DNA of 59,633 nt from a virus. The stretch is from the IMG/VR virus record IMGVR_UViG_3300032323_001198, positions 1 through 59,633 of that record, one strand, 5' to 3'. The notes under the pieces were generated by a model, which worked only from the letters and a program-made list of their open reading frames with translations, searched no databases and was not told the DNA's origin. Position 1 is the stretch's first letter; every line of letters begins with the position of its first letter. The translations under genes were made by a program, and so were the position numbers. Positions 7,560 through 35,347 of the stretch are shown one piece after another.

Positions 7560-9026
7560 ATGCCATTACAGCTTCGCAGAGGCAACACCGCTGAAGTTAA
7601 CAGTATTACGCCCTTAGTAGGCGAAATAGTCTATGACACCCAATTAAAAAGAGTCACTGTTGGTGACGGTTCCACTGCTGGCGGTATAGCCATTGCTGGC
7701 GTGTCTTTGAATGAAGCCAAAGATGCAGCAGCATCTTCCTTGTTAGCAGGAACACATAAAAATATTTCTTTTGCTTATAACAGCACAACAAAGGTTCTAA
7801 GCGCCACTGTTGATATTCTTACACACGAAACAATAGTTGCAGATGCCATTGATGTGTCTGCTGTAAAAGACGGATCTACAATAATATTAGATGTAGCCAA
7901 CGCTACCCTTTATGCAGATGTAACAGGAAACGTAACCGGCAATATTAACGGTGTTGTAACAGGCACTGCTGGTTCTAGTCTTATTGGCAATGTTACTGGT
8001 AATACCACAGGATATCATACAGGCGATGTTAAGGGTTCTGTATTTGCAGATGACTCAACAGTATTAGTAGATGGCGTATCTGGAAAACTATTTGGAGATC
8101 TAACTGGTAATGTTACTGGCAATTTAACAGGTAATGTTACTGGTAATTTAACAGGTAATGCAGATTCAGCAACTGTTTCTGCAACCATTAATATTACAAA
8201 TACTAACGGATTGGCAACTGTTTACTATCCAACATTTGTACAAGATAGAACAACCGGCCAGATTCTTCGTGGTGATGTAGATCTGTCATATAGAACAGAT
8301 ACTAACACATTAACTTCTCCAAATTTTGCAGGAAACCTAGTCGGTAATGTTACAGGCAATGTAACAGGTAATACCACAGGATATCATACAGGCGATGTTA
8401 AAGGTTCAATATTCGCAGATGATTCTACTGTACTAGTCAATTCTGTAGCAGGATTATTGAACGGTTCTGCTATTTCCGATATTACCACACCACGTGTTAC
8501 TATTAATAGAAACAGCGATACTGGAGTTTCTATTCTTATGAATGCCTTAACTAGTGCCGGTGATACTGCATCGGGTGCTGAGTTCCGTGTATCTCGAGGT
8601 ACATTGGCTTCGCCAACGGCTCCTTCTGCAGGCGATCCGGTATTCTTATTAACCGGTAAGGCCTATAAAGCAGATATTACAGATTATGCATTGTCATCGG
8701 CAATTATCGGTATTGTAGGATCCGATCCGCTGGTTCCTGCAGTCAATTATGTTAGCGGACAATTAGAGTTTTATGTTACAGACGGTACTAGAGATTTATT
8801 TGACTCTGCCTTTGTAATGTCCTATGATGGGGCTGGAGTACTATCTGTTCCAACAGTTGAAGCAAGAACTGCCTTTCAGTTACCTGTATATGCCGATGAT
8901 GCTGCTAGACTAGCAGCGATTCCTTCACCCGCCCAAGGTATGATGATATTCATGGTTTCTGGAACTGCACCTGCAGCCACTAATAACACACAAGTATTCA
9001 ACGGCTCGAATTGGGTCAACTTATAA
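7560..9026 (+). CDS. tail fibre / tropism-determinant-type structural protein
   Basis: A 488-residue virion-type protein. Residues 1-45 (LQLRRGNTAE, PLVGEIVYDT, VTVGDGSTAGG) match the major-tropism-determinant N-terminal domain seen in many phage tail proteins. The middle is a series of GN(V/L/I)TGN repeats and two copies of a GDVKGS(V/I)FADDSTVLV module, typical of beta-helical fibres. The C-terminus (DDAARLAAIPSPAQGM, then FNGSNWVNL) resembles a fibre tip or trimerisation segment. It is probably host-contacting. The 3' end overlaps the opposite gene by six bases. Confidence 0.8.
   Translation: MPLQLRRGNTAEVNSITPLVGEIVYDTQLKRVTVGDGSTAGGIAIAGVSLNEAKDAAASSLLAGTHKNISFAYNSTTKVLSATVDILTHETIVADAIDVSAVKDGSTIILDVANATLYADVTGNVTGNINGVVTGTAGSSLIGNVTGNTTGYHTGDVKGSVFADDSTVLVDGVSGKLFGDLTGNVTGNLTGNVTGNLTGNADSATVSATINITNTNGLATVYYPTFVQDRTTGQILRGDVDLSYRTDTNTLTSPNFAGNLVGNVTGNVTGNTTGYHTGDVKGSIFADDSTVLVNSVAGLLNGSAISDITTPRVTINRNSDTGVSILMNALTSAGDTASGAEFRVSRGTLASPTAPSAGDPVFLLTGKAYKADITDYALSSAIIGIVGSDPLVPAVNYVSGQLEFYVTDGTRDLFDSAFVMSYDGAGVLSVPTVEARTAFQLPVYADDAARLAAIPSPAQGMMIFMVSGTAPAATNNTQVFNGSNWVNL
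7999..8402 (+). repeat. duplicated fibre module at DNA level
   Basis: A block of about 35 bases beginning GGTAATACCACAGGATATC occurs at about 7999-8033 and again at 8368-8402, each followed by a diverged FADDSTVLV-coding segment. The interval also holds tandem GTAATGTTACTGGTAATTTA-like units. This is consistent with internal duplication in a beta-helical fibre. Confidence 0.8.
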
Positions 9027-9515
9027 GATTTCCGAAAGTTGTAACATAATTCTAGGGGAATAACTTATATTGGCAGCGCCGTGTAAATCGGTAGCATAGT
9101 CAAATTGATATAAGTCCCCTAGTTTGTAGTCCTTAATCATTTCCCCTTTATAGATAAACACATGTCCGGGCTCATAGTCCATGAGTGGCATCCAATATCT
9201 TCTAACATCAGAAGTATGAGTGAACGGATCAGAGTGCATGGGCATGTATTGTCCAGGCATTAACTTAGTGATCCACCAACTGGTCTTACCTTGACTCCAA
9301 CTAGGTTGGATATCTATTCCCAGATCATCTTTTTCGTAGATTGTCCATAAAGGTTTTGAAAAATCGTAACCTGCTTCTTGGGCTAGTTGATATTGCTCTC
9401 TTTCAAAGTAATTTAAAAGATCTCCAAAATCAGGTCTTGGTTTTCCAGGCCGTTGATTAACCAATTCAACCCAACGCGGGTCTACCCAATCTTTGTAATT
9501 TCCTATTAGATTCAT
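9021..9515 (-). CDS. small 2OG/Fe(II) oxygenase-like protein
   Basis: A 164-residue protein with a compact oxygenase core: MPGQYMPMHSD with H94-x-D96, LHGA with H145, and R155 in the last strand (SPRIMLQL), plus a PGHVFIYKGE strand. This is the usual Fe(II) triad plus 2OG-binding Arg. It is related in layout to the product at 31188-31679. The family hydroxylates protein residues or small molecules; the target is unknown. It follows the next upstream (minus-strand) gene with one base between them and overlaps the structural gene by six bases tail to tail. Confidence 0.75.
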   Translation of the reverse strand: MNLIGNYKDWVDPRWVELVNQRPGKPRPDFGDLLNYFEREQYQLAQEAGYDFSKPLWTIYEKDDLGIDIQPSWSQGKTSWWITKLMPGQYMPMHSDPFTHTSDVRRYWMPLMDYEPGHVFIYKGEMIKDYKLGDLYQFDYATDLHGAANISYSPRIMLQLSEIL

Positions 9516-9516
9516 T

Positions 9517-10332
9517 TTAATAACTGTCTACTTGATCTATACCTAGTCTCTTTCTAAAGTTTTCAGTGAACACACAGTCTATCCTAACTCCGTACTCTTG
9601 CTCTCTAGAAAATTCTCCACCGTGCCAATCTTGATCATTCCAAAAACTAGCATGGCCATTCATATAACATTTATTTTCCGATTCTGAATCTCTAACATAA
9701 AATCCACGCTTAGTTCTAGAGCGCATATGAATAAATTCATTTTTGTGAGGAGTATATTGACTGTTGTTGAATATTCCGTTCTTAGCATCTAGGTCTCGAT
9801 GTTCAAAAGCAACTCCATTGTGATCACATAAAAATATAATCACCCTTCCTATCTGTGAAATAACATCTGTATCTATAAGATTCTTAATCCATGCAACTAA
9901 CCCAGGAAAATATTTAGATTCTTCGGTTTGATTTTTTTCAGAATTTCTAGTATCCCAATTTCCTTCTTCCCAAAGAAAATAATATATGTAAGGATCATTT
10001 GCTCCCATAGTTGCTTTGAGATATCTAGTAAAAATATTTCTCTGTTTATAATCTTTGAAGTTATTAGGAAATATTTCTTTACCTGCAACCTTAATAGGAT
10101 CATTATCTGAGAGTGCCTGATATTCGTCAAATGCCTTATGTATAGGTTTCCAATCAATAATGTAACTAGCATCTTCCCATCTAAATCCAGGAGCCATCCA
10201 AGTTCCTTCTTTGGCATACTCTCTAGCCAAAGCCATACCTTTAGATATTTCAGGGTGTAGATTTTTGAATCCTTCTATATCTAAGTAAGGATCAAGATTA
10301 ATATAGGGCTGACCGCCAATTCCTTTGATCAT
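9517..10332 (-). CDS. 2OG/Fe(II) oxygenase-like protein
   Basis: A 271-residue protein. The oxygenase core is in the second half: H178-x-D180 (EHRDLD), H237 (DWHGGE) and R250 (GVRIDCVF). The N-terminal 110 residues are helical and charged and of unknown role. The ATG lies five bases after a TATAAATA motif on the minus strand, so the mRNA should be leaderless. It is the first gene of a two-gene operon with 9021-9515. The substrate is unknown. Confidence 0.7.
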   Translation of the reverse strand: MIKGIGGQPYINLDPYLDIEGFKNLHPEISKGMALAREYAKEGTWMAPGFRWEDASYIIDWKPIHKAFDEYQALSDNDPIKVAGKEIFPNNFKDYKQRNIFTRYLKATMGANDPYIYYFLWEEGNWDTRNSEKNQTEESKYFPGLVAWIKNLIDTDVISQIGRVIIFLCDHNGVAFEHRDLDAKNGIFNNSQYTPHKNEFIHMRSRTKRGFYVRDSESENKCYMNGHASFWNDQDWHGGEFSREQEYGVRIDCVFTENFRKRLGIDQVDSY

Positions 10333-10358: not shown

Positions 10359-11063
10359 ATGAACACTGAGTTTGAATACTACTATAATAATGTTCCTGAC
10401 AAGGGACTTTGCAGAAATAATTTGATTTATACTAGCCTAATCAGCCACGATAAAAAAACATTTTGTCAATGGTATTACAATGATCAAGGATATCATGGCG
10501 GGAAAAATCAAGTGGTAGATCCTAGTCTAATGGAATCAAAATGGCTACGTGAAGTGAAATTTATTAAACTTATAAGTGAACACTATCCAGAACACGTACC
10601 TGAAATTCTAGACATAGATTATATTAACAGAAAAATCTTTCTAAAAATCGACGGTCCCGATATGTGGGAATTAGCAGGTTGCCAAGGTAACGACTATATC
10701 AGCGTTCTTCCTAATTGGGAAGAACAGATGCTAGACATTATTAAAAGTTATCAATCATTAGGCATTTATAAAATGTCTATGCATCCTAGCAGTTATTTTA
10801 TCATTGACGGAAAAATGAAAGGTATAAATTATTTTTTCTGTTATACTGACGAGGATGAAGAAATATCTATGAGTAGTCTAATGAGTCATATCAGTAAAGA
10901 TAGACAAAAAACTCTACAACCTATATTTGACTCTTTGAAAATTAATCCCGATGAGCCAACTGCTTTTTGGAAAATACAGATGCTGACCTTTGAAACGTTT
11001 AAAACAAACTTCTTAGACAGTACTATGGAAAAGGCTAAACTGATTTATCAACGGCCTGTTTAA
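10359..11063 (+). CDS. kinase-like (aminoglycoside-phosphotransferase-type) phage protein
   Basis: A 234-residue protein related in layout to the product at 13142-13822. Shared are a central strand pair VPEILDIDYINRKIFLKIDG, then a helix, then KMSMHPSSYFIIDGKMKGINYFF. The last segment resembles the catalytic loop and the following metal-binding strand of small kinases (H-x-S..., then D/N). A clear ATP Lys loop is not seen, so activity is uncertain. It lies alone between opposing oxygenase and SDR genes. Its end overlaps the SDR gene by 29 bases. Confidence 0.5.
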   Translation: MNTEFEYYYNNVPDKGLCRNNLIYTSLISHDKKTFCQWYYNDQGYHGGKNQVVDPSLMESKWLREVKFIKLISEHYPEHVPEILDIDYINRKIFLKIDGPDMWELAGCQGNDYISVLPNWEEQMLDIIKSYQSLGIYKMSMHPSSYFIIDGKMKGINYFFCYTDEDEEISMSSLMSHISKDRQKTLQPIFDSLKINPDEPTAFWKIQMLTFETFKTNFLDSTMEKAKLIYQRPV

Positions 11064-11664
11064 TTCTTTCAACTAATTGATCCAACTGCGGTTTAGTTTT
11101 CATTTTAGTTGATATTTGATCATAGAGCAAATCTGTAATCTTAAAATTAAATCTTACATTATTGAAACTGGGATTTCGTATCCAAAAATTCACAGTGTCA
11201 ACTACTTCATCAAAAGATATAGTATAGTCACATTTAAGATTATTGGGATCGTCTATGTCTACAATATTGCCTTCTAGACAGGAAAGATCAAGATGCAGTA
11301 TTTTTGTTTTACTATTCTTATCTAGAGAAATTAAATGACAGACTTCTGCTAGATCTTTTTTATTTTTTCCGTAATCTGTAGGTATTAGATCATTAAAGAA
11401 TCCGCCTTGAGATCCTGATACTACTAACATCTTTACTCGATTATTTAGATGCTTGACTAATTCTATTTGTCTTCGATCTGCATAGGCATTGCTAATAAAC
11501 AAATCACAATTTTCTGCTGCGGCAATCACAGAGTCGATAGATGTTTTAATATCCGTTCCTTGACTTCTACTAAAACCTATTACTGTATTATTGGGATCTT
11601 TGACAAAATGATCATATAATGTTTTGCCTAAGCCTCTAGTATGACCTGTTATAACTATTTTCAT
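11035..11664 (-). CDS. short-chain dehydrogenase/reductase-like protein
   Basis: A 209-residue protein with the NAD(P)-binding TGHTRGLGK near the N-terminus, an NAYA segment (the NAG position) and the catalytic YGKNK (Y-x3-K). It is shorter than classic SDRs (about 250) but complete in motifs. I take the ATG at 11664 over a TTG one codon upstream; it overlaps the stop of the upstream 56-residue gene (TGATG). A second, smaller SDR lies at 12672-13145. A plausible role is redox of a sugar or small-molecule intermediate made in the island; this is inference. Confidence 0.75.
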   Translation of the reverse strand: MKIVITGHTRGLGKTLYDHFVKDPNNTVIGFSRSQGTDIKTSIDSVIAAAENCDLFISNAYADRRQIELVKHLNNRVKMLVVSGSQGGFFNDLIPTDYGKNKKDLAEVCHLISLDKNSKTKILHLDLSCLEGNIVDIDDPNNLKCDYTISFDEVVDTVNFWIRNPSFNNVRFNFKITDLLYDQISTKMKTKPQLDQLVERIKQAVDKSV

Positions 11665-11834
11665 CAAACTAAATTCTTTTTTACAAACTCTAAAAATCCG
11701 TTAGGCATTTTTTCATCTACAATTTTTTTGACTTCTTCAATTTCATAAAGATCCTTTAGAATCTTATACATAGCAGCATTGGCCTGCTGTAACTCCATGA
11801 ACTTGTTTAAGAAGAACTCGTCTTTGTTATCCAT
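11664..11834 (-). CDS. 56-residue helical protein, unknown function
   Basis: A short ORF between the cold-shock/hydroxylase gene (one base gap) and the SDR gene (overlapping stop/start). The ATG has GAGG ten bases upstream. The product is acidic and helical with Met/Leu/Lys heptad character and no Cys, Ser or Thr-rich core. It is the only short ORF inside the modification island, so it is worth considering as a partner or substrate peptide, but nothing marks it as a RiPP precursor. Confidence 0.65.
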   Translation of the reverse strand: MDNKDEFFLNKFMELQQANAAMYKILKDLYEIEEVKKIVDEKMPNGFLEFVKKNLV

Positions 11835-11835
11835 A

Positions 11836-12675
11836 TCAATATCCTCTGCTATCGTCTCTTTTCAAATTACTTAGACAGAAAATGATAGCAAATTTTTCGC
11901 CTTCGGTTATTTCTTTGCTTTCGTGTATCAATGACCAGTCTAAATCTAAATCTTCAGTGTGATGCCAAACAGACATTCTACCTTTTTTAGGTTTGATAGA
12001 AACATCTATGTGTGGAAAGTATGTTTCACCGCCAACAAAATCATCATTAAGATAAACCAGTGCTACTGCATCTCTAGTTCCTGCTTTTTGATAATAATCT
12101 AATTTTCTTGGATCATATGGCCAATCATGATGCGGAGTCATGTAATGACCTGTTTGATAGTATAATATGTCTGCTGACTCTATAAGATAGTAAGGTCTGC
12201 CTAACGCATCTGATGCGGCAGTTGAAATAGTATCATAATCTTGATAGGTAAAATCGTTAAGTATCCTTCGGTGGATATTTCGATCGTTGGCTTGACCATA
12301 TGTATCTCTAGAACAATCTGATCTATGGTCTCCCATGGTAATATACTTTCCAGGGTAATCTACGCTAAGACTACGTTTGATTAGATCATCGCAATATTCA
12401 TCGGGTAGAACATTATCATAGATACTGACTCTTGGATAGTCATGAAGAACAACTTCTTTGAACTTAGACGACTTTTCTTTAATTTGATCGTAACTAAAAT
12501 TAATTACATTAAGATCAAAGATTGAATTATCAATAACTTTAAATTCTACACGTTGACCTTCTAACAAACAACCTTGTCTGTAATTATACACCGGAATTTC
12601 CACACCATTATCGGAAGAGATGAGGCCATAAGATTTTGAGTTGTTAAACCATTTAACTGTTCCAGTTTCCATCAT
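11836..12675 (-). CDS. cold-shock domain fused to prolyl-4-hydroxylase-type oxygenase
   Basis: A 279-residue fusion. Residues 2-60 form a cold-shock domain: TGTVKWFN opening, KSYGLIS as a degenerate RNP1, and a closing GQRVEFKV strand. Residues 85-272 form a P4H-type 2OG oxygenase: TPHHDW with H182-x-D184, VGGETYFP, then IHES with H251 and 2OG-binding K261 (GEKFAIIF). Cold-shock domains bind single-stranded RNA or DNA; P4H domains hydroxylate prolines, including in translation proteins. The fusion suggests a nucleic-acid-tethered hydroxylase. It sits in a five-gene minus-strand operon with kinase-like and SDR genes. The activity is inferred, not shown. Confidence 0.82.
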   Translation of the reverse strand: MMETGTVKWFNNSKSYGLISSDNGVEIPVYNYRQGCLLEGQRVEFKVIDNSIFDLNVINFSYDQIKEKSSKFKEVVLHDYPRVSIYDNVLPDEYCDDLIKRSLSVDYPGKYITMGDHRSDCSRDTYGQANDRNIHRRILNDFTYQDYDTISTAASDALGRPYYLIESADILYYQTGHYMTPHHDWPYDPRKLDYYQKAGTRDAVALVYLNDDFVGGETYFPHIDVSIKPKKGRMSVWHHTEDLDLDWSLIHESKEITEGEKFAIIFCLSNLKRDDSRGY

Positions 12676-13861: not shown

Positions 13862-14827
13862 ATGTCTACTCAATTTCAACCCTCTACACTATGTTGGTAC
13901 GACGATAACGGTATCAATTTACCAATGATTTCTGATCATGCTAGGAATCAATTCTATCAACGTATACTATCCAAATCAGTAAAGAATAAAACATGTATCG
14001 ATGTTGGGTTCGGGACTGGTTTATTATCTCTAATGGCTTTAGAACAAGGTGCTGAAAAGATAATTGCTTTTGAAACAAACGCCGAACGATATCATCTAGG
14101 TTTAGATATTATTGAAAAGTTAAAACTTAAAAATCTAATTGACCTAAGAAATGAACGATATTGTTCAACATATTTCAAAGATCAAACTTGTGTGATAATA
14201 CAAGAAATTGTCGGACACAATTTATGGAATGAGGGTCTAAGATTTATTATAGATAAAGATCAAGTTTTAGTTCCTGGAGACTTTTACTGCGAATACTATT
14301 GTTGTCCTATTGATGAAAATATCTATCAACAGTTTATAAACCATCATACAGACTCAAGTAAAATAAATCTAGGAATTAATTTAAACAATTTTAATTTTTT
14401 AAAATTAATTTATGAATATCAAATAAAAGAGCAAAATGTAATAAATTTAAATGACGAAAAAATTATCAAAGACATTTACAAAGATCTATTATCTAAAGGC
14501 AGTTTAATCGGAAAGTATTGCGTACTTACTAATCAGAAAAAATTGTTGATCAACGAAGCGACAGTAGAATATAATTTAGACTGTGATCAGATAGGATATA
14601 TTGATGTTCCTTTAACTATAAATTTGAAATTTGATTGTTCAATAATATTAGCCAAATATTTTATAGGACACAATGAAGATCTGCTAGTTATATCTCCCAG
14701 TGAAGATAATCCAACTTCTCACTGGGCAGTGCCTACTCCTGTTTGCGTAATATCTGATTTAGAAAACAGTTTTATAGCCAGAACTTATCTAGATGACGGT
14801 TCTGTAAGAGTGTATCCTAAGAAATGA
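13862..14827 (+). CDS. PRMT-like class I methyltransferase
   Basis: A 321-residue SAM-dependent methyltransferase. Motif I is IDVGFGTG (46-53) with acidic E71 at the end of strand 2. The segment IIQEIVGHNLWNEG carries E115 and E124, nine residues apart, exactly the spacing of the PRMT double-E loop that grips the substrate arginine. The C-terminal half is beta-rich as in the PRMT barrel, with late HWAVPTPVC. It could methylate arginine or a guanidino product, which would connect to the two amidinotransferases. The 3' end overlaps the opposite oxygenase gene by 43 bases. Confidence 0.75.
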   Translation: MSTQFQPSTLCWYDDNGINLPMISDHARNQFYQRILSKSVKNKTCIDVGFGTGLLSLMALEQGAEKIIAFETNAERYHLGLDIIEKLKLKNLIDLRNERYCSTYFKDQTCVIIQEIVGHNLWNEGLRFIIDKDQVLVPGDFYCEYYCCPIDENIYQQFINHHTDSSKINLGINLNNFNFLKLIYEYQIKEQNVINLNDEKIIKDIYKDLLSKGSLIGKYCVLTNQKKLLINEATVEYNLDCDQIGYIDVPLTINLKFDCSIILAKYFIGHNEDLLVISPSEDNPTSHWAVPTPVCVISDLENSFIARTYLDDGSVRVYPKK

Positions 14828-15423
14828 AAAATGTAATTTGGCCTGTTGCTATTATTGATCAACGAATGTAGTTCTTTAGTAGTAGGCCACTTTACTACTG
14901 TGTGCTTAGATATATTTTCATATTTGTTATCACCGACTATAAAAATTTGATCTTGTACAGGATCATCTATGAATACCATGTATCTGACTAGATTTTTCTT
15001 TTCTAATTCAATCCAAGTTTTTTCTTGATCAAATTCGTCTTTATGAAAAGGTATAGTTGAGTATGCATCAACTCTGCTAATCCAACATTCCTGAACTGAG
15101 TGTCCAACAAGACTTTCAAACTTATCTACTATAGATTTTGAAAAATGATTCTCAGAATTATATTGCTCAAGATTTGGATAAAAATTTTGAAAGGTTATTT
15201 TTGTAAAATCAAGTCTCTGATCAAAATAATTCTTAACCATTTCAACAAACGGTGTTCTACTAAATTCAAATGGTAGAAGACCTTTGTCGATAATTTCTTG
15301 ATAAGTTTGTAACTCTGTTTTTTCTGTATCAATAGTTTGGTCTACATGACGTACTGAACCTGTCTTTGAGTCTAGGCTCTGAATAATGTCATCCCAATTT
15401 ATAATACCATCTGTGGTTATCAT
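14785..15423 (-). CDS. 2OG/Fe(II) oxygenase-like protein (NWDD family)
   Basis: A 212-residue member of a three-copy family in this island (also 25006-25551 and 25548-26117), recognised by an N-terminal INWDDIIQSL and a core WISRVDAYSTIPFHKD with H127-x-D129. The distal His lies in the C-terminal third (HSLINN) but is less clear than in the paralogues. I prefer the ATG at 15423, because a minus-strand TATAAATA lies between it and an upstream in-frame ATG at 15444. Leaderless expression is expected. The substrate is unknown. Confidence 0.65.
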   Translation of the reverse strand: MITTDGIINWDDIIQSLDSKTGSVRHVDQTIDTEKTELQTYQEIIDKGLLPFEFSRTPFVEMVKNYFDQRLDFTKITFQNFYPNLEQYNSENHFSKSIVDKFESLVGHSVQECWISRVDAYSTIPFHKDEFDQEKTWIELEKKNLVRYMVFIDDPVQDQIFIVGDNKYENISKHTVVKWPTTKELHSLINNSNRPNYIFHFLGYTLTEPSSR

Positions 15424-15427
15424 AAAG

Positions 15428-15435
15428 TATTTATA
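15428..15435 (-). promoter_or_regulatory. late-type promoter TATAAATA, 4 nt before ATG
   Basis: Exact motif on the minus strand; decides the start of the oxygenase at 15423. Confidence 0.65.
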
Positions 15436-15451
15436 GTGGTACATTATAGCC

Positions 15452-15459
15452 TATAAATA
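15452..15459 (+). promoter_or_regulatory. late-type promoter TATAAATA
   Basis: Exact motif on the plus strand. The first downstream ATG (15459) overlaps its last base, so the ATG at 15468, eight bases further, is the better start. Confidence 0.6.
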
Positions 15460-15467
15460 TGATAGTT

Positions 15468-26117: not shown

Positions 26118-27150
26118 CTCTAACTGTATCTAAAGTCACGCAGTGTGGACCTCCACTGAGTGTTCTACAATGTCTAAGTCGAACTGGTACAATATCAAAA
26201 CCTTCTCGCTCTAACTGATTGATTAAAACTGTCTGCGATTGTTCCACGGCTATTGTATGATCGTTGATACTTAAAACATTCATACCTAACCAAGGACTAG
26301 CAGGCGCCCAGTGTTCTATATAAGGTGTTTCTATGGGCTCTTCTGACCAAATCTTTTTCCACGAACGAAAGTATTCAGGAAGGTTAGATTCGGTAACTCT
26401 GGCAGGATTCAATAAAACAGTGCCAGCACTTAATGGTAATATACTTGTATCTAAATGCACATAAGCATAGATGTTATCTAAGATGTGAACCGTATATCGA
26501 TCCCCTAAAGTAGACTGCAACCATTTGGCACCTAGCCTATTTCCAGAATTAGAAATTAAAAAGAAAATATCTTTACCACATTTAATCACATTAGCAGCAT
26601 CAAATGCCGGCTCGAAATCTGTTAATGTTGGTTTGCTGAGATCAGTTCTGTCATATAACTCATCCAGTAATTGTCCTTTAGGAGCAGATATCCAACGACT
26701 GCCGGCATTAAAATAATTTTTAAAAATTTTTCTATAGGCAAAGTTTTCAAAGTATCTAGATCTCAACGGCATAGGAGTTTCTATAATCATATCTCCTATA
26801 ACTAATGCACTGTCTCTAGGACAGTAATTGTAATAACCTTCAGACTGCCAGTCAGTAGTTGAATGTGTTTTAGCCAAATCTAAAACATCTGGTCGTAAAA
26901 CTTTTATTCCTAGAGATTCTAGTTGTTGTTGAAAAAGATCTAGATCCTCTTTTGTTTCTTCTATGAGTTGTTGAGGATAGTATCCACCAGGCAATGCATC
27001 TACTGAATCGTAGTTTGCATAATCAACGCAATGGATATCTTTATTTTTGGTACGAGGTATACTAGCGTTTTCTGCTCTACCTAAAATAATCTCTTTTAAC
27101 GCTCCCCATTCTGTATTTGAATTTACTTTATTCATGTGACCTATCATCAA
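26092..27150 (-). CDS. glycine-amidinotransferase-like enzyme
   Basis: A 352-residue homologue of arginine:glycine amidinotransferase, which moves the amidino group of arginine onto an amine. Catalytic features are present: EPAFDAANVI (Asp), YAYVHLDTS (His), and GGPHCVTLD with nucleophile C337. The acceptor may differ from glycine. Start: ATG at 27150 overlaps the upstream oxygenase gene; ATG at 27135 (MNKVNSN) is also possible. It lies in one operon with P4H-like and NWDD oxygenases and radical SAM enzymes. A diverged second copy is at 31710-32690. Confidence 0.85.
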   Translation of the reverse strand: MMIGHMNKVNSNTEWGALKEIILGRAENASIPRTKNKDIHCVDYANYDSVDALPGGYYPQQLIEETKEDLDLFQQQLESLGIKVLRPDVLDLAKTHSTTDWQSEGYYNYCPRDSALVIGDMIIETPMPLRSRYFENFAYRKIFKNYFNAGSRWISAPKGQLLDELYDRTDLSKPTLTDFEPAFDAANVIKCGKDIFFLISNSGNRLGAKWLQSTLGDRYTVHILDNIYAYVHLDTSILPLSAGTVLLNPARVTESNLPEYFRSWKKIWSEEPIETPYIEHWAPASPWLGMNVLSINDHTIAVEQSQTVLINQLEREGFDIVPVRLRHCRTLSGGPHCVTLDTVRDDHYGDYH

Positions 27151-27865
27151 CTGGTTTTTGATTTTGCAAATCGTACCAATATAAACTTCTATGTGGAGGT
27201 TGATCTTTTAAAGGTTCCTGATTACTAACATAGTAAAAAAGTCTTAAAGTCTTTCTAGATTGATCAGTAGGACAATCTATTGGATCTGGGTATCCGTGAA
27301 AACAACTTTCATGGTGCTGCCAAATTATTGCTCTATTCCATTTAATATAAACTTTATTGATACTATCTTGATTATCAAAACTAGAAAATTCTAAATTACC
27401 GCCCCAGTCTTCTTGCCATCCCTCACTAAGGTAAACTATCAGAGTTAATGCTCTGTATAATTTTATAGTATCATTCCAATTAAAGTCTATGTGATTTTTA
27501 AGACTGTCACCTTTGAAACTTCTACTATATCCTGCTCCGATCAAATAAGGATCAGGTATAAGATGATCTATACCCGTAACTTGATTTAACCATTTCATAA
27601 AAGTCTGAGAATGCAATTGACCTATAACATCTTGTGCTAAAGGCATCAAAGATAGATTGTTACATTCTTCCATGTAACTTCCGTTTCTAGTAAACTTTCT
27701 ACAAAGGTCTGCGTCTATGGAATCAATTTCTTTGCTGAGATTTTTAGCTGTGTCTTCTGGAAAAAAGTTGTCTAAAACTATCATAGGTGCAGGACTCGCG
27801 TCTTTAAACACAGAGTTAAGATTTTTTACATCGTAATTTTCAATTAATCGATCAATGATGGGCAT
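27128..27865 (-). CDS. P4H/Ofd1-type 2OG oxygenase
   Basis: A 245-residue protein with the classical P4H-type core: LKNHIDF with H125-x-D127, a RALTLIVYLSEGW strand, WGGNLEF, CFHGYPDP with H190, and RKTLRLFYY with R208. Family members hydroxylate proline in proteins (for example ribosomal protein uS12) or small molecules. It is first in its six-gene minus-strand operon. I prefer the ATG at 27865 to a TTG two codons upstream; TTAAATAT lies six bases before it. Confidence 0.8.
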   Translation of the reverse strand: MPIIDRLIENYDVKNLNSVFKDASPAPMIVLDNFFPEDTAKNLSKEIDSIDADLCRKFTRNGSYMEECNNLSLMPLAQDVIGQLHSQTFMKWLNQVTGIDHLIPDPYLIGAGYSRSFKGDSLKNHIDFNWNDTIKLYRALTLIVYLSEGWQEDWGGNLEFSSFDNQDSINKVYIKWNRAIIWQHHESCFHGYPDPIDCPTDQSRKTLRLFYYVSNQEPLKDQPPHRSLYWYDLQNQKPVDDRSHE

Positions 27866-27871
27866 GATCAA

Positions 27872-28512: not shown

Positions 28513-30411
28513 ATGAAAAATGTATATCTTATACAGGTAGTAGACAACTACGGACCTAATAAGTTTTTGCCGTTAGCAATTTCTTATCATTGGCTTGACG
28601 CTATCTCTGACGAATATGTCGCACAAACATATACTTTAAAAGAAGTATTGATAGAAAAAGAAAACATAGATTCATTTGTCAGTCGAATTGAAAAACCAGA
28701 TGTATTGGTAATGAGTTGTTATATATGGAATTGGAACTATAACTGCGCATTGGCTGAGCGAGTGAAAGAATTATGGCCTGATTGTTTTATAGTTGTTGGC
28801 GGTCCTCAAATTAGCACCACTGATGCTTTCTTGTTAAAAAAACATCCTTATTTTGATATAGGAGTGCTAGGCGAAAACGAAGGAGCATTAACTATAATTT
28901 TAAAAAATTTAGAAACTAGAAATTTCCAAGAACTTTTAGGAATCAGTTTACCAGGAAAAATTATTTCAGGTGTAACAAGAACAAAAAACTTAGACAGTTT
29001 ACCTAGTCCTATTTTATCTGGATTTTATGATCAAATAATTGATCAATACGAAACACGAAATCAACAAAAATTTTTATGGCAAGTTACTATAGAAACTATG
29101 AGAGGTTGTCCCTATCATTGTACATTCTGTGACATAGGCGATTCGTACTGGAACAAAGTACAGATGTTTGACTTAGAAAGAATTTACAAAGAAATTGATT
29201 GGATATCTGAAAAACAAATTGAATATGTGTCTGTATGCGATAGTAATTGGGGTATGTTTGACAGAGATTTAGATATCACAAGATATGTTATTGAAAAAAA
29301 ATTAGAAACTGGATATCCAAAAGTGTGGGACATAGACTGGGCAAAAAATAATTCTGAACGTATTAAAAGCATGGCCATATTAGATAAAAATGCAGGCACT
29401 AATCTTTTTAAAGGAATTACTTTTGCTTTACAAAGTTTAAATGACAACACCTTAGCAGCCATAGATAGATTTAATCTCTCAGAACAAACTATTAGAGATG
29501 CTATGGATTTTTATAAAAAGAATGATATTAAGACTTATTCAGAATTAATATGGCCTCTTCCAGAAGAAACAATCACAAGTTTCACAGAAGGTTTACAAAA
29601 ATTAATAGACATGGGACAAGAACATTTTTTAATGGTTCATCCCTTATCCCTTACTCCTAATGCTCCTATGAGCGATCCTAACTACTTAGATAAACATAAA
29701 CTTTCACAGAAGAAAGTTCCTTTAGATACATTTTGGTTAACAGTTGACGACGAGAATTCGTATATTGTAGAAACTATGGGAACTGTTGATTCAACTAGTG
29801 TTCTAAACACGCAAGAAGTATTAGACGGATATATGATTGCTCATTGGACCATAGTCATGTACTACTATGGATGGGGACATTATATAATGAAATATCTAAA
29901 GAAACAGGGCACCAAAGAAACAGAGTTTATATTAGACCTTGTAAATTATATCGAAACAAGTAAACAAGGTTTGTTTTATAATGAACACGCAGTTACAAGA
30001 TCCAATATAGAAGAAGTTATTAACAAAGGTACGTTCTGGGGTAGAAAAATAGACAGAACTTACTGGGAGTATAAATCTGCGACTTGTATATTTTTTCAAA
30101 AGAACAGACAACAGTTTATTGAAGAATTAACAGAGTTTCTTAAAAACGTCTATAACATAAACAACGAACAATTGATAGAAATTAATGACCTAATGTGCAT
30201 AGACTACAATAAAACATATCCAGTGATTTATCAAACTAAAAATAATTCAGTGATAAAAGATTTATTTGATCTACATACTGATTATGTAGAAATATCACAT
30301 GAGGATTTATCAGATCATACTGAAGAAGAATTTTTTAGAAAAGCCTATCACTACCAAAGAAAAAATCAATACTGGAAATGTTCAATTAAATCTTTGAGTA
30401 AAAATAGTTAA
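28513..30411 (+). CDS. B12-binding-type radical SAM enzyme
   Basis: A 632-residue protein. Residues 1-130 resemble a cobalamin-binding Rossmann domain (VLVMSCYIWNW, FIVVGGPQ, GVLGENEG), without the D-x-H-x-x-G motif, as is common in this class. The radical SAM core follows with C199-x3-C203-x2-C206 (CPYHCTFC). The C-terminal 200 residues are unassigned. Family members methylate unreactive carbons or carry out ring-forming chemistry. It is coupled to the DegT-type gene. The 3' end overlaps the opposite oxygenase gene by 30 bases. Confidence 0.82.
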   Translation: MKNVYLIQVVDNYGPNKFLPLAISYHWLDAISDEYVAQTYTLKEVLIEKENIDSFVSRIEKPDVLVMSCYIWNWNYNCALAERVKELWPDCFIVVGGPQISTTDAFLLKKHPYFDIGVLGENEGALTIILKNLETRNFQELLGISLPGKIISGVTRTKNLDSLPSPILSGFYDQIIDQYETRNQQKFLWQVTIETMRGCPYHCTFCDIGDSYWNKVQMFDLERIYKEIDWISEKQIEYVSVCDSNWGMFDRDLDITRYVIEKKLETGYPKVWDIDWAKNNSERIKSMAILDKNAGTNLFKGITFALQSLNDNTLAAIDRFNLSEQTIRDAMDFYKKNDIKTYSELIWPLPEETITSFTEGLQKLIDMGQEHFLMVHPLSLTPNAPMSDPNYLDKHKLSQKKVPLDTFWLTVDDENSYIVETMGTVDSTSVLNTQEVLDGYMIAHWTIVMYYYGWGHYIMKYLKKQGTKETEFILDLVNYIETSKQGLFYNEHAVTRSNIEEVINKGTFWGRKIDRTYWEYKSATCIFFQKNRQQFIEELTEFLKNVYNINNEQLIEINDLMCIDYNKTYPVIYQTKNNSVIKDLFDLHTDYVEISHEDLSDHTEEEFFRKAYHYQRKNQYWKCSIKSLSKNS

Positions 30412-31188
30412 ACCTATTTTTTTATTGTGCCCAGAGCAAGCACAATGCAGTCTAGTTCTTTCAAAGGCAAAACAACTACCAACATTCCAGTGGATTATAG
30501 AATTTAATGTCAGGCCGTGTAAAGTTTCTATAGGAATATGTGTGAAGTTTTGAGCATGTATCTGTTCATTAAATTTTAATTGTGGGTCATATCCTATTAC
30601 GTTTGTGTAATCATAACATCGACCATCAACTTTACTTGTTTTTAAATCTTGTCTTGCATCTATTAGATATCTAAGGGTAGATATAAATTTTTCATCTATA
30701 ATAAAATCACTTATAGTTTCTGGAGAATTTAAACATTGGTCTAATAGTATTCGAAGATCTTTAATATAGGACCAACTATTGAAACGATTAGGTAAATTGT
30801 ATTCAAAGGGTTCTATTTTTACTTTGCTAAATCTTGCGCTCTCCGAATGCCAATGGTTATCAAATAGTGCTGTTGATCCTATACCATCTACAGACAATGG
30901 AAAAATAATTACATGTCCTTTTCTTGAACTTTCATTTTTTCCGCTGTCAACATGTAGACTATAACTTATCTTGGTATCAAAAAATACAACTTCTTCTACA
31001 TGATAATCATAATCTAAAATGTTATCTAATACATTTTTAATACTGTACTTAGGCCATTGACTGTCCCATTGAGGATGTTTGCTTCTAACATCTGGCCTAT
31101 CATCAACTGTTTCATCGTCTGTATGAAAATAATCTAACAGAGATCTAATGTTGTCGTTGGATAATTGATCATTGAATATTTGAATCAT
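30382..31188 (-). CDS. 2OG/Fe(II) oxygenase-like protein
   Basis: A 268-residue protein with SYSLHVDSG (H79-x-D81), a GHVIIFPLS strand, and RTRLHCACSGHNKKIGLTIF with H248 and a following Lys that could bind 2OG. A roughly 110-residue insertion separates the metal motifs, longer than usual. It shares one base with the upstream oxygenase gene, forming a two-gene minus-strand operon. Substrate unknown. Confidence 0.65.
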   Translation of the reverse strand: MIQIFNDQLSNDNIRSLLDYFHTDDETVDDRPDVRSKHPQWDSQWPKYSIKNVLDNILDYDYHVEEVVFFDTKISYSLHVDSGKNESSRKGHVIIFPLSVDGIGSTALFDNHWHSESARFSKVKIEPFEYNLPNRFNSWSYIKDLRILLDQCLNSPETISDFIIDEKFISTLRYLIDARQDLKTSKVDGRCYDYTNVIGYDPQLKFNEQIHAQNFTHIPIETLHGLTLNSIIHWNVGSCFAFERTRLHCACSGHNKKIGLTIFTQRFN

Positions 31189-31679
31189 TATTTGTAGCCA
31201 GTTATCTGAAGTGCGTATCTGTCAACTTTGCTAAGATTATAGAAAGCATGAGAATCATAACTATTCCAAGAGAACCAATCTCCCGCTAACCATTCGCAAT
31301 AAACTTTATTTTTAACCTGTAATACTTGCCCCGGAGAACTATCCTCCAACATTAAAACTATTCTAACAACCGAATCTGCATTTTCTAAGTTATGTATCTT
31401 TGTATATCTTTCATATCTGTCAGAATGCAAAGGAATATATTGCCCAGGTGTAAAAAAGTTAACTGCGGCTGTTATACCTTTTAGATCAAATTTATCCAAT
31501 ATATGAGATAAAGGAAAATCTATATCGGTTTCGAAACAATTATAAAATTTCATCGAATCTATACTGTGTCCATATTTGGAATATTCGTCACAGAGAATAG
31601 GATCTGGATCAAAATTGTATTTTAGATCTTTGAATTGTTGAATATTCCAGGTTGATTCGATGTGTCCAAAATTTCTCAT
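31188..31679 (-). CDS. small 2OG/Fe(II) oxygenase-like protein
   Basis: A 163-residue protein related to 9021-9515: FTPGQYIPLHSD with H85-x-D87, SSPGQVLQVKN, SHAFYN with H144, and R154 (DRYALQIT). It opens the operon with 30382-31188. A TTAAATAT motif on the minus strand ends four bases before its ATG, so the message is probably leaderless. Confidence 0.72.
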   Translation of the reverse strand: MRNFGHIESTWNIQQFKDLKYNFDPDPILCDEYSKYGHSIDSMKFYNCFETDIDFPLSHILDKFDLKGITAAVNFFTPGQYIPLHSDRYERYTKIHNLENADSVVRIVLMLEDSSPGQVLQVKNKVYCEWLAGDWFSWNSYDSHAFYNLSKVDRYALQITGYK

Positions 31680-31709: not shown

Positions 31710-32690
31710 ATGTTAAGTTCGAACGAATGGGATACCCTCAAAACAGTAATTGTCGGTGATGCTACTGGTGCTAAAGTACCAAATGTAGATATCAGTCTGC
31801 GTACTGTAAATTATGCTGATGTAGTAGACGACAGTGAAATACCTGTAGGTCCTTATCCACAACAGGTTATTGACGAAGCCAATGAAGATCTAGAAATTTT
31901 TTGTAATTTTCTTAAAGAAGAAAATGTGACTGTACTTCGTCCAGAAAATATCGATCCAGAATACTACAATTACTGTCCTAGAGATGGTGTATTAGTTTAC
32001 AAAGATTTAATATTAGCCACTCCCCAACCTTTAAAATCTCGTCGTTTAGAATATCTTGCTTTAGACACTCATCTAAAAAATCATAGCGACCAAGCAAACT
32101 ATATCTTACAAAGGCCAGAATTTACAGACGAATTGTATAATACGTCATGTATAAAAAACAAAGATGTTCTTGCATTAAATGAAACAGAGCCTAGTTTTGA
32201 TGCAGCCAATGTTTTAAGATGCAATGACGATTTATATTATCTAGTAAGTAATAGCGGTAATAAAAAAGGTGCAGACTATCTACAATCACTAGTAGGTAAT
32301 TCGGCCAAGGTGCATACTTTAGAAAATATCTACAGTTATATGCATCTGGACAGCACTATTGCTTTTCTTCGAGAAGGTTTAATGTTATTGAATCCTAGCA
32401 GAATCAAAGACAAAAGCCAACTGCCTGCACCTTTACAAAGTTGGGACGTTGTATGGGCACCGGAGCCTATAGATATCGGTCATTATCCTGGATACTGTAA
32501 TGCTAGTATATGGATGAACATGAATGTATTTTCTATTAATCCGAATCTTATTGTCGTCGAAGAACATCAAGAACCACTAAGAAAATTATTAGAAGATTAC
32601 AATATAGACTGTGCTATGTTACCAATGCGTCATGAAAGAACATTAGGTGGCGGTTTTCATTGTGTAACGTTGGATTTGATTAGAAATTAA
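31710..32690 (+). CDS. glycine-amidinotransferase-like enzyme, second copy
   Basis: A 326-residue paralogue of 26092-27150. Catalytic blocks are intact: EPSFDAANVL, YSYMHLDST and GGGFHCVTLD with nucleophile C318. The N-terminus is shorter and the middle differs (no TTDWQ block), so acceptor specificity probably differs. It stands as a single plus-strand gene; TTTATAAA precedes the ATG. The last four bases overlap the opposite radical SAM gene. Two diverged copies suggest two amidination steps or two substrates. Confidence 0.85.
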   Translation: MLSSNEWDTLKTVIVGDATGAKVPNVDISLRTVNYADVVDDSEIPVGPYPQQVIDEANEDLEIFCNFLKEENVTVLRPENIDPEYYNYCPRDGVLVYKDLILATPQPLKSRRLEYLALDTHLKNHSDQANYILQRPEFTDELYNTSCIKNKDVLALNETEPSFDAANVLRCNDDLYYLVSNSGNKKGADYLQSLVGNSAKVHTLENIYSYMHLDSTIAFLREGLMLLNPSRIKDKSQLPAPLQSWDVVWAPEPIDIGHYPGYCNASIWMNMNVFSINPNLIVVEEHQEPLRKLLEDYNIDCAMLPMRHERTLGGGFHCVTLDLIRN

Positions 32691-33772
32691 TTTAATCCAG
32701 ATCTTTCTACAAACTGATCTTTGGGTTTTGAAATTGTTTGTTTTTCATTAACCCCGCAGGTTCTAGCACACACAATAAGTTTGTAATCATTCCAATAATA
32801 ATCCCAAACCGTTTGCCAAGCAGTTGAACTAAGAACATTTTTAATACCAACATTTACTGCATCTAATTGATCAATTCCACCTAAAGAATCAACTAGCAGG
32901 GAATATTGTTTTTTAATTTCTTGTCTAACAGGAAAAGTTAAGTCAGAAGTTTCTGTATAGTTGTACGGAGTTGATGCTAAAAAGCAACACGGAAATATTT
33001 TTTTATAAGCGTCTATATATATTTCTTTGTTGTTTAATACATAACAATCTATTTTAGATTCGCTTACCCAAGTTTTATAATTCTTGATCATATCTGGACT
33101 TATCAGTGTCACCTGATTGTTTCTAGGTGGTTCTAAGTGATACATAGTATTTCCAGATTTATCTACGACTTTGGATTTTTCTTCTAAAAATCTAGTGCTA
33201 TTTTTTACAGTGAATAAACTAAATCCTAGATCCTTGGCTCTCTGTCTTGCTTCGTCAACTTGATGCTCATTGTGTTTAAATTTTATAAAGACCCATTCAG
33301 CCGTGCCGCCTGCATCAATAAATGCTTTGGCATTACGTGTGACATTTTCGTAAGTGGTGCCTATTCTATACAAATGATGAGTATCTTCTAAACCATCTAT
33401 ACCAAATATTACAAAATGATTCTTAGGTAATTTTGTTACTAACGATTTCCACCACGCTTGAGATCTAGCACCACCATTGGTATGAATTCTAATTTGTAAA
33501 TCTGGATTGATTGCTGTGACGTATTCACACATTAGATCTAGATCATTATTAATTATAGGATCACCAAAGTTTCCACAAAAATAGATATTTTTAATTTGTC
33601 TAAGAACTTCCTCAGTGAATATATTTTGAAAGTCACTCAACGACCATTCGTTGATCTTTATATAAGGATTATCTAAGCCGCCTCTGAAATTTCTAGAACA
33701 CATAGGGCATGATGCCTGACAGTTGTTGGTAATTTCTAGATGTACAGAATCTAATTCTGAAAAATTAAACAT
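32687..33772 (-). CDS. radical SAM enzyme with C-terminal SPASM-like Cys module
   Basis: A 361-residue enzyme: C18-x3-C22-x2-C25 (CQASCPMC), IYFCGNFGDP in the GGE position, and a C-terminal module with DCYV, FPCCFL and VCARTC that likely binds an auxiliary cluster. It is closely similar in order of motifs to the split gene at 37318-38224. It overlaps the upstream methyltransferase gene by eight bases, in a three-gene minus-strand operon starting at 35347. Confidence 0.83.
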   Translation of the reverse strand: MFNFSELDSVHLEITNNCQASCPMCSRNFRGGLDNPYIKINEWSLSDFQNIFTEEVLRQIKNIYFCGNFGDPIINNDLDLMCEYVTAINPDLQIRIHTNGGARSQAWWKSLVTKLPKNHFVIFGIDGLEDTHHLYRIGTTYENVTRNAKAFIDAGGTAEWVFIKFKHNEHQVDEARQRAKDLGFSLFTVKNSTRFLEEKSKVVDKSGNTMYHLEPPRNNQVTLISPDMIKNYKTWVSESKIDCYVLNNKEIYIDAYKKIFPCCFLASTPYNYTETSDLTFPVRQEIKKQYSLLVDSLGGIDQLDAVNVGIKNVLSSTAWQTVWDYYWNDYKLIVCARTCGVNEKQTISKPKDQFVERSGLN

Positions 33773-34373
33773 ATTTCTTGCCTATTATCATGTATCTAGT
33801 ATACAAAGGAAGATCCATCTCACCAGCATAAAAAATCTGTGCTAACTGGCTTTGACTTTTGAACTCATCTAGATTTTCTGCTATTCTTACATGCTCCGGT
33901 ATTTTATAATTATTGCTTTGTAATACGATTAAACTATTTTTAGGAATCTTTTCAAGCCATATAAGATACTGCTCTTGAGTAATGTGTTCGAAACTAGTGT
34001 TAATAATTATATCTGCAGTACTAGAAAACGAACACATGTCTGCAGTTATGGCATTAAACTTTCCAGACTCTAATTCCATTTGATTCATATCTAGTGCTAT
34101 GTCTTTACAATTTGGATCTATGTCTATACTGTTGATATGAGAAATATATAAATCGCTTTGAAATATCAAACTAGCCAGGGTTCCTACCCAACCGCCGTGT
34201 ATATCAATAGACGGCCATTGTTTAGTATGATGTCTTTGTTTTTTTAGTTCATCAATTAACCATTCTTTGCTAAGAATTTGTCCTCGCCAAAATGCATCCA
34301 TGGTGCGCATAGGATCTTTACTGTTGCGTATGGCTCGCATCCAATGATGTATGTGTTCTGTATCTATTTGCAT
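33765..34373 (-). CDS. class I SAM methyltransferase
   Basis: A 202-residue protein with IDIHGGWVGTLASLI as motif I, NSIDIDPNC at the end of strand 2, ADIIINTSFEH in the strand-4 position, and LIVLQSNNY. Methyl acceptor unknown. It is sandwiched between two radical SAM genes with overlaps of 10 and 8 bases, suggesting stepwise action on the same substrate. Confidence 0.75.
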   Translation of the reverse strand: MQIDTEHIHHWMRAIRNSKDPMRTMDAFWRGQILSKEWLIDELKKQRHHTKQWPSIDIHGGWVGTLASLIFQSDLYISHINSIDIDPNCKDIALDMNQMELESGKFNAITADMCSFSSTADIIINTSFEHITQEQYLIWLEKIPKNSLIVLQSNNYKIPEHVRIAENLDEFKSQSQLAQIFYAGEMDLPLYTRYMIIGKKYV

Positions 34374-35347
34374 TTTGGTATCTTTGAATCCGCTGAACTA
34401 ACGCATGACGGTGTAATACAGATTTTAGGTTCTTTAAATAAGTTGAACCCTGCTGTTAGTGTACCTAATAGTTGGTCATGGCAACTATAAGATCTTTTAA
34501 CTTCTTCGCTTCTTATTATAACACTTTGATATCCAGAATTGCAATGCCAATCTTGGAATTTATTAAAACCGTAGGCATTAAATCGCTCTGCTTGATCGAA
34601 TAGATATTCGGTGTTGTCTGAATCGTATAATGCAATTTGATAGATATCTTCTCCATCGGCTCTCTGCGGAAAGCCAACCTGCATTAGAGTCATCATATCA
34701 TCTGTGTATCCACTAACGACAGAACTAGCAGTAGGATCGCTTTGCGGTTTAAGTGTTACATTAATACCGCGACTGTGAAGTCTACTGCATCTATCGTAGA
34801 GTTCATAAAACTGATCAGGTACCATCACTTGATTAACTGTAACAAAAACATTGTCATTCATTAACTGTAGACACTTGTCTCCAAACTCCTGTTCCTTAGA
34901 AAACTCTGCGTGATAACTGGCCGTAATACTTCTACGTTGAAGGTCGGCGGTTATGTCGCACCAATTCTTCCACCATTTCGATCCTGGAGAGAGATTGGTA
35001 GTCATGTGTATGCTTTGATATGGAGTTAATGGTCCATCATCCAAATGTTTAATCAATTCTGGTAACCGTTTATAAGCAGTTGGTTCCCCGCCACTAAAAC
35101 TCCAATGGAATTCAGTAAATCCATTTTGTCGTGCCTGGCGTTTGATTTCATCTATAGTCTGTATATACACTTCGTGATCTTGGTGATCAACTCGATCGCT
35201 ACGGGCATACGGCCAGCAATATGAGCAATTATAATTGCAGAATCTGCCCAAAATCCAACTAACAGAAAACAAAGGACGGTTCAACATTGTTCTCTGTCCA
35301 AACTTGATTATATTTTGAAATGGTATATTTTGAAATTCATGTGTCAT
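34364..35347 (-). CDS. radical SAM enzyme
   Basis: A 327-residue enzyme with C37-x3-C41-x2-C44 (CNYNCSYC), WSFSGGEPT, and C-terminal Cys residues (DWHCNSG, YSCHDQ, ICITPSCVS). It heads the last minus-strand operon of the island; TTAAATAT lies nine bases upstream of the ATG. It belongs to the CNYxCxYC group with the three enzymes at 20.6-23.6 kb. Confidence 0.85.
   Translation of the reverse strand: MTHEFQNIPFQNIIKFGQRTMLNRPLFSVSWILGRFCNYNCSYCWPYARSDRVDHQDHEVYIQTIDEIKRQARQNGFTEFHWSFSGGEPTAYKRLPELIKHLDDGPLTPYQSIHMTTNLSPGSKWWKNWCDITADLQRRSITASYHAEFSKEQEFGDKCLQLMNDNVFVTVNQVMVPDQFYELYDRCSRLHSRGINVTLKPQSDPTASSVVSGYTDDMMTLMQVGFPQRADGEDIYQIALYDSDNTEYLFDQAERFNAYGFNKFQDWHCNSGYQSVIIRSEEVKRSYSCHDQLLGTLTAGFNLFKEPKICITPSCVSSADSKIPKCK

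What the first reader, a model, noticed from the sequence alone, without database searches (positions are those of the whole stretch)
9021..35347. 26-kb phage island of radical SAM, 2OG oxygenase, amidinotransferase and methyltransferase genes
Seen: 30-odd genes in short opposing operons, of which eight have intact radical SAM CxxxCxxC motifs, ten look like 2OG/Fe(II) oxygenases, two are amidinotransferases, three look like methyltransferases, two SDR, two kinase-like, and one minimal DegT. Established: SPASM/twitch radical SAM enzymes and 2OG oxygenases typically modify peptides, proteins, sugars or bases. Inference: this is a modification or biosynthesis system of a kind I do not know from described phages. 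No obvious precursor peptide is encoded, so the target may be a host or virion macromolecule.
Basis: partly seen in the sequence, partly recalled or inferred. Interest (0 to 1): 0.92.

Follow-up and report, generated by a model that had tools for sequence, protein, structure and literature searches.

The report
Jumbo-phage radical-SAM and oxygenase gene cassette
A family of giant T4-like lake and coastal phages carries a shared block of 20-30 working genes for unusual radical and oxygen chemistry, probably to build or decorate an unusual surface sugar; rSAM-rich blocks have been noticed before in a few phages, but nobody has shown what they make.

Summary
Window 9021-35347 has 30 intact genes: eight radical SAM (rSAM), nine supported 2OG-type oxygenases, two StrB-like amidinotransferases, two SDR, two kinase-like proteins, a minimal DegT and two methyltransferase-like genes. 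Every gene is under purifying selection (dN/dS 0.02-0.15 against the nearest sister). The genes travel together: 75 of 80 viral loci found through g02 carry island rSAM genes within 10 kb, against 0 of 39 long loci found through a backbone gene of the same phage lineage. The carriers are about 360-kb T4-like jumbo phages, which also encode IscU, an IscA-type protein and Fe-SOD. A core (N-twitch rSAM g18, rSAMs g28 and g30, often methyltransferase-like g29) lies next to a GT-A-fold protein in Bdellovibrionota chromosomes and in other phages. The DegT-rSAM-oxygenase-amidinotransferase run keeps its order inside a glycosyltransferase cluster of cyanophage S-SCSM2R. Best reading (about 50%): a modular cassette that makes or tailors an amino/guanidino-modified glycan. 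The acceptor is unknown; peptide or protein modification is the main rival. rSAM-rich phage modules were described before (Campylobacter phages 2010, T4-like virus 2017, pelagimyophages 2020), so this is a new variant, not a new kind.

The parts
9021..9515 (-). g01, AspH-like 2OG oxygenase (HxD)
   Evidence: weak PF05118; profile-profile to g09/g19/g20 and g26
9517..10332 (-). g02, HxD protein, possible oxygenase; most widely conserved marker (203 viral stretches matched)
   Evidence: no profile support as 2OG enzyme
10359..11063 (+). g03, kinase fold without HRD/DFG residues
   Evidence: AF2 pLDDT 90, Foldseek to kinases; residues read from alignment
11035..11667 (-). g04, SDR-like
   Evidence: weak PF00106
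11664..11834 (-). conserved 56-aa ORF, the only conserved small ORF inside the island
11836..12675 (-). g05, cold-shock domain plus 2OG-Fe(II) oxygenase
   Evidence: PF00313, PF13640
12672..13145 (-). g06, SDR
   Evidence: PF00106
13142..13822 (-). g07, kinase-like, same family as g03
   Evidence: profile-profile 100%
13862..14827 (+). g08, methyltransferase-like (close copies only in nearest sisters)
   Evidence: weak hits
14785..15444 (-). g09, AspH-like family
15459..16649 (+). g10, unassigned
   Evidence: no family
16646..17386 (+). g11, AspH-type oxygenase
   Evidence: PF05118 above cut-off
17383..18615 (+). g12, unassigned, often paired with g11
18596..19294 (-). g13, AspH-like oxygenase, core position before g14
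19337..20611 (+). g14, rSAM with N-terminal SPASM/twitch (core)
   Evidence: NF033640 332 bits against cut-off 170
20614..21510 (+). g15, rSAM (core)
   Evidence: PF04055
21503..22594 (+). g16, rSAM
   Evidence: PF04055
22587..23582 (-). g17, rSAM
   Evidence: PF04055
23579..25000 (-). g18, rSAM with N-terminal SPASM/twitch (core; also in Bdellovibrionota)
   Evidence: NF033640 411 bits
25006..25599 (-). g19, AspH-like family
25548..26117 (-). g20, AspH-like family
26092..27150 (-). g21, StrB-like amidinotransferase
   Evidence: 1bwd E 9.4e-99
27128..27871 (-). g22, 2OG-Fe(II) oxygenase
   Evidence: PF13640
27922..28512 (+). g23, minimal DegT aminotransferase
   Evidence: PF01041; 53% to S-SCSM2R
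28513..30411 (+). g24, B12-binding rSAM (KedN5-like)
30382..31188 (-). g25, unassigned, HxD motif
31188..31679 (-). g26, AspH-like oxygenase
   Evidence: weak PF05118; 43% to S-SCSM2R 2OG gene
31710..32690 (+). g27, StrB-like amidinotransferase
   Evidence: 1bwd E 4e-72; 57% to S-SCSM2R
32687..33772 (-). g28, rSAM (core; also in Bdellovibrionota)
33765..34373 (-). g29, methyltransferase-like (core), by sequence reading
   Evidence: no family hit
34364..35347 (-). g30, rSAM (core; 45-57% in Bdellovibrionota)
37318..38224 (+). ninth rSAM, split into core ORF (37318-37983) and SPASM-like ORF (37964-38224)
   Evidence: PF04055; same split in sister contigs
47479..48033 (+). Fe/Mn superoxide dismutase (possible support gene)
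   Evidence: PF02777
48122..48508 (+). IscU-type Fe-S scaffold (possible support gene)
   Evidence: sequence; NifU_N in 15 of 16 long lineage contigs
48480..48806 (+). IscA-type Fe-S protein (possible support gene)
   Evidence: PF01521
7560..9026 (+). fibre-like virion protein with Mtd_N domain, left border of island
   Evidence: PF18454

Best explanation
The island is a modular biosynthesis and tailoring cassette of a jumbo T4-like phage lineage, most likely making or decorating an unusual sugar-containing molecule during infection. Proposed path (inferred): a DegT-type enzyme (g23) aminates a keto-sugar or cyclitol; StrB-like amidinotransferases (g21, g27) turn amines into guanidines using arginine; the rSAM enzymes (g14-g18, g28, g30 and the B12-dependent g24) and AspH/P4H-type oxygenases change C-H bonds (epimerisation, dehydrogenation, methylation, hydroxylation); SDR and methyltransferase-like enzymes finish the unit; glycosyltransferases, present as a GT-A-fold partner in sister islands and bacteria but not identified inside this island, attach it to a host-envelope or virion acceptor. 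Phage IscU, IscA-type protein and SOD may supply and protect the Fe-S clusters. Shown: enzyme families, linkage, purifying selection, conserved order, GT-A fold of the partner (predicted), synteny of the g23-g27 run with a glycosyltransferase cluster. Inferred: sugar substrate, reaction order, acceptor, and benefit (receptor masking or superinfection exclusion, or an altered virion surface).
For: Co-occurrence: 75 of 80 g02-seeded loci hold island rSAM genes; 29 of 54 long g14-seeded loci have all six core genes and the rest at least three; control with a backbone gene 0 of 39. Function kept: dN/dS 0.02-0.15. Glycan link: a GT-A-fold protein (pLDDT 94; Foldseek hits nearly all glycosyltransferases; VIA Z up to 12 to glycosyl- and nucleotidyltransferases of this fold) lies beside g18/g28/g30 in Bdellovibrionota and in 34 phage loci. 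Cyanophage S-SCSM2R has DegT (53% to g23), rSAM, GT, 2OG (43% to g26) and amidinotransferase (57% to g27) in the order of g23-g27, among glycosyltransferases. g21 and g27 match StrB, an aminocyclitol enzyme, best of all solved structures. Sister islands hold UDP-sugar dehydrogenase, GDP-mannose dehydratase-like and aminotransferase genes. Campylobacter CP220 has five rSAM genes plus an amidinotransferase next to sugar-transferase-fold genes. The window also has KdsA and a glycosyltransferase. Fe-S supply: IscU and IscA-type genes in most lineage loci.
Against: No island rSAM or oxygenase has a characterised close relative, so no substrate is assigned by homology; N-terminal SPASM/twitch enzymes could act on peptides. 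No certain glycosyltransferase lies inside this island itself (g10 and g12 unassigned; profile comparison of g12 with the GT-A family gave nothing). The core rSAM genes and the g23-g27 run may be two systems lying side by side: g21-g27 are rare in relatives, while the core is common. Tail-fibre proximity is not above background (26-30% against 34%), so there is no positional support for a virion target. The Fe-S genes are backbone genes of the lineage, so their link to the island is circumstantial.
Confidence: 0.5

Rival explanations
1. Peptide or protein modification: the N-twitch rSAM enzymes and AspH-type oxygenases modify side chains of a virion protein (for example repeat-rich fibres) or a host protein, and amidinotransferase and glycosyltransferase act on those modified residues.
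For: NCBIfam places g14-g18 nearest to SPASM/twitch rSAM families, many of them peptide maturases; AspH is a protein hydroxylase family (background knowledge); several Foldseek hits of the GT-A partner are protein or peptide glycosyltransferases such as SunS and GalNAc-T; a fibre with Mtd_N borders the island.
Against: No precursor gene; fibre proximity not above background; StrB and DegT families act on small molecules or sugars.
Confidence: 0.25
2. A diffusible small molecule (guanidino or aminocyclitol-like natural product, antimetabolite or signal) made during infection.
For: StrB, DegT and KedN5-like enzymes are typical of natural-product pathways; a halogenase-like gene (by sequence reading) and class III aminotransferase genes occur in some sister islands.
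Against: No NRPS/PKS and no exporter identified; repeated association with a glycosyltransferase fold fits an attached product better.
Confidence: 0.13
3. DNA or tRNA modification protecting the phage genome or its tRNAs.
For: The phage carries many tRNA genes and a QueD-like gene; DNA of Campylobacter phage IBB_35, a relative of CP220, inhibited polymerases (PMC3322345).
Against: The QueD-like gene lies outside the island as a lineage backbone gene; no base-modification family found in the island; amidinotransferase and DegT do not fit.
Confidence: 0.07
4. Anti-defence or viperin-like nucleotide chemistry.
For: Weak matches of g14, g16, g18 and g30 to pVip and a match of g24 to candidate defence family PDC-M51A.
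Against: Scores far below the NCBIfam viperin cut-off (52 against 180 bits at best); the other enzyme classes are unexplained.
Confidence: 0.04

Closest known systems
rSAM-amidinotransferase module of Campylobacter phages CP220/CPt10 (PMC2853527)
   Same: Several rSAM genes plus a StrB-like amidinotransferase (34% to g21) and sugar-transferase-fold genes in a replaceable block of a T4-related phage
   Different: No relatives of g14/g18, of the oxygenases or of the kinase-fold pair found in the CP220 block; different phage subfamily
Glycosyltransferase-rSAM-2OG-amidinotransferase cluster of Synechococcus phage S-SCSM2R (PQ898602)
   Same: Orthologues of g23, g26, g27 in the same order, with one rSAM between
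   Different: Only one rSAM in the cluster, no core-type relative, several glycosyltransferases
rSAM cassettes in the host recognition cluster of pelagimyophages (PMC7029224) and T4-like TARA virus with 12 rSAM genes (PMC5332604)
   Same: T4-like aquatic phages with many rSAM genes, and an Fe-S assembly gene (ATC) in the TARA virus
   Different: Gene-level relation to this island not tested here; no function given beyond surface change or Fe-S metabolism
Bdellovibrionota chromosomal set GT-A + g18 + g28 + g30 (sometimes g29)
   Same: Same core enzymes at about 33-57% identity, adjacent
   Different: Chromosomal, small, no oxygenase array; not described as a system in the papers I could search
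Streptomycin StrB (inosamine-phosphate amidinotransferase)
   Same: Closest solved structure of g21 and g27
   Different: No streptomycin pathway; acceptor unknown

Membership tests
N_Twi_rSAM (NF033640) | whole-protein score above curated cut-off (170 bits) | tested here: met
   g14 332, g18 411 bits; conserved N-terminal Cys and CxxxCxxC
Radical SAM superfamily (PF04055) | score above gathering cut-off | tested here: met
   eight island genes and the split ninth
StrB/AGAT amidinotransferase | full-length homology to a solved amidinotransferase | tested here: met
   the His-Cys motif is visible in the g21 alignment
StrB/AGAT amidinotransferase | amidino transfer from arginine to an aminocyclitol phosphate | not testable with these tools
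   needs enzyme assay
AspH/2OG-Fe(II) oxygenases | profile support plus HxD motif | tested here: met
   nine genes; g02 and g25 not supported
Catalytically competent kinase (g03) | HRD Asp and DFG Asp | tested here: not met
   kinase fold, but both residues replaced in g03 by reading against TTK; conserved columns
RiPP biosynthetic cluster | conserved precursor peptide gene next to the rSAM genes | tested here: not met
   no small ORF with leader/core layout; only 11664-11834 conserved inside the island
Prokaryotic viperin | score above NF038283 cut-off (180 bits) | tested here: not met
   best 52 bits
CP220-type phage rSAM module | several rSAM genes plus amidinotransferase in a replaceable block | tested here: met
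   but the core genes differ
T4-like jumbo phages | gp23/gp20/gp17/gp18 homologues and genome size | tested here: met
   for relatives G032 and G035, syntenic with the window flanks; the window itself is a fragment without gp23
Glycan biosynthesis system | a product containing a modified sugar | not testable with these tools
   needs mass spectrometry

The most novel reading that the evidence does not exclude
Jumbo phages and predatory Bdellovibrionota share a previously unrecognised radical-chemistry core (GT-A-fold protein + N-twitch rSAM g18 + rSAMs g28/g30, with or without g29) that installs a new type of modification on a surface glycoconjugate or adhesin, and phages have expanded it into an exchangeable 20-30-gene cassette with oxygenases and guanidination enzymes.
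Probability: 0.22. Interest if true: 0.85.

Novelty: new variant of a known kind. Interest (0 to 1): 0.62.

Why it matters
It is a dense set of uncharacterised radical and oxygen enzymes on a virus, kept by selection and spread over many members of a jumbo-phage lineage in lakes and estuaries. If it makes or edits surface glycans, it would explain why several unrelated phage groups collect rSAM genes, a question open since 2010, and offer new carbohydrate enzymes. The short core shared with Bdellovibrionota gives a testable entry point.

Tried and rejected
RiPP reading: small-ORF clustering found no precursor. Defence reading: only weak pVip hits and one candidate-family hit. Tail-fibre linkage as evidence for a virion target: in G032 the island lies between fibre-like genes, but over all loci fibre proximity is not above background. 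Recent foreign origin from base composition: GC is lower, but GC at third codon positions differs little (0.26 against 0.29), so not used. Long rSAM arrays in marine MAGs (L218, L250, L253) were not counted as bacterial, since those genomes also hold T4-type capsid genes; L237 and L235 had none but were not relied on either. Profile comparison of g12 with the GT-A family found nothing. PDB sequence searches with the GT-A and g12 alignments found nothing. Searches of deposited phage genomes for g02, g30 and the GT-A partner found no match.
Full report
WHAT IS THERE. The window is a 59.6-kb virus record. Between a fibre-like gene with an Mtd_N domain (7560-9026) and the gene at 35761-36273 lie 30 genes in short opposing runs, with GC 0.29-0.37 against about 0.39-0.42 around them. 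Pfam, NCBIfam, PDB and profile-profile comparisons give eight radical SAM genes, nine supported 2OG oxygenases, two amidinotransferases, a minimal DegT, SDR and kinase-fold genes. Without an assigned family remain g02, g10, g12 and g25, and g29 rests on reading alone.

INTACT AND SELECTED. Against the nearest sister contigs every one of the 30 genes has dN/dS between 0.02 and 0.15. A ninth rSAM outside the range is split over two overlapping frames; the same split occurs in the sister contigs with 91-93% protein identity, so a random sequencing error is unlikely.

DO THE GENES BELONG TOGETHER? A scan with g14 gave 79 viral loci; most also carry g15, g18, g13, g29 and g30. Of the 54 loci of at least 15 kb, 29 have all six core genes (g14, g15, g18, g28, g29, g30) and none has fewer than three. 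An independent seed, g02, gave 80 loci, of which 75 have island rSAM genes. As control, a backbone endonuclease gene of the same lineage gave 80 loci, of which one (a near-identical sister contig) has island rSAM genes, and none of the 39 of at least 15 kb. All 29 records tested hold 5-13 rSAM domains. Gene order recurs: g13- g14+ g15+ (g16/g17) g18-, and g28/g29/g30 as a group.

WHICH PHAGES. Two relatives of 358 and 364 kb, syntenic with the window's flanks, have T4-type gp17, gp18, gp20, gp21 and gp23; the capsid protein of one is about 70% identical to those of jumbo phages PA5oct/Paride and Vibrio 2.275.O. In these relatives the island lies at other places than in the window, and nearly all rSAM genes sit in one block, so the cassette changes place as a unit. 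The lineage also carries IscU, an IscA-type protein, Fe-SOD, KdsA, a QueD-like gene and a glycosyltransferase as common backbone genes.

WHAT IT MAY DO. Three lines lean to sugar chemistry. First, in Bdellovibrionota chromosomes the core (g18, g28, g30, sometimes g29) stands next to small proteins that AlphaFold and Foldseek place in the GT-A glycosyltransferase fold; the same partner occurs in 34 phage loci. g30 was found in 15 of 144 genomes of that class. Second, cyanophage S-SCSM2R has orthologues of g23, g26 and g27 in the same order, with an rSAM, inside a run of glycosyltransferases. Third, g21 and g27 are closest to StrB of the aminocyclitol pathway, and sister islands add NDP-sugar enzymes. 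The acceptor is not known. The core and the g23-g27 run could be separate systems side by side.

WHAT IS KNOWN. Campylobacter phages CP220/CPt10 carry an interchangeable block with five rSAM genes and an amidinotransferase (PMC2853527). A T4-like virus with 12 rSAM genes and an ATC gene was reported in 2017 (PMC5332604), rSAM cassettes in pelagimyophage host-recognition clusters in 2020 (PMC7029224), and eight rSAM genes in Aeromonas phage 332-Vera in 2025 (PMC12390700). None gives a product. What is added here: the core set, its link to a GT-A-fold protein and to Bdellovibrionota, the oxygenase array, the evidence of selection, and a controlled co-occurrence test.

LIMITS. All close relatives are metagenome contigs, mostly fragments; many are near copies of each other, so counts are not independent events. 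The residues of g03/g07 and the methyltransferase features of g29 were read by eye. No product, substrate or expression was measured.

Noticed in passing
window 37318-38224: Ninth rSAM gene (g28 paralogue) split into two overlapping ORFs in different frames; the split is kept in sister contigs.
   Followed up: partly
window 35411-35518: tRNA-like sequence (25 bits, below the Rfam cut-off) of 108 bases with a tRNA T-arm and acceptor stem, not called by ARAGORN, at the right border of the island; the same neighbourhood occurs in several relatives next to g30.
   Followed up: partly
window 35567-35758: Small conserved basic protein resembling a histone H1-like protein, between the tRNA-like sequence and the gene at 35761.
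   Followed up: no
window 44401-46089: Phage-borne KdsA (Kdo-8-phosphate synthase, far above cut-off) followed by a glycosyltransferase; KdsA in 49 of 80 lineage loci.
   Followed up: partly
window 47479-48806: Fe-SOD, IscU and IscA-type genes in a row; IscU in 15 of 16 long lineage contigs.
   Followed up: yes
window 43711-44238: QueD-like gene; the relative G032 also has a QueE-like gene near 205.1-206.0 kb (by reading), suggesting 7-deazaguanine modification.
   Followed up: no
window 1-5500: Dense tRNA array (16 called genes plus one cut at the start).
   Followed up: no
L218:15206-15763: Nucleoside phosphorylase-type gene (PF01048), possibly a 5'-deoxyadenosine/SAH nucleosidase, inside an rSAM array of a marine MAG contig that may be phage DNA.
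   Followed up: partly
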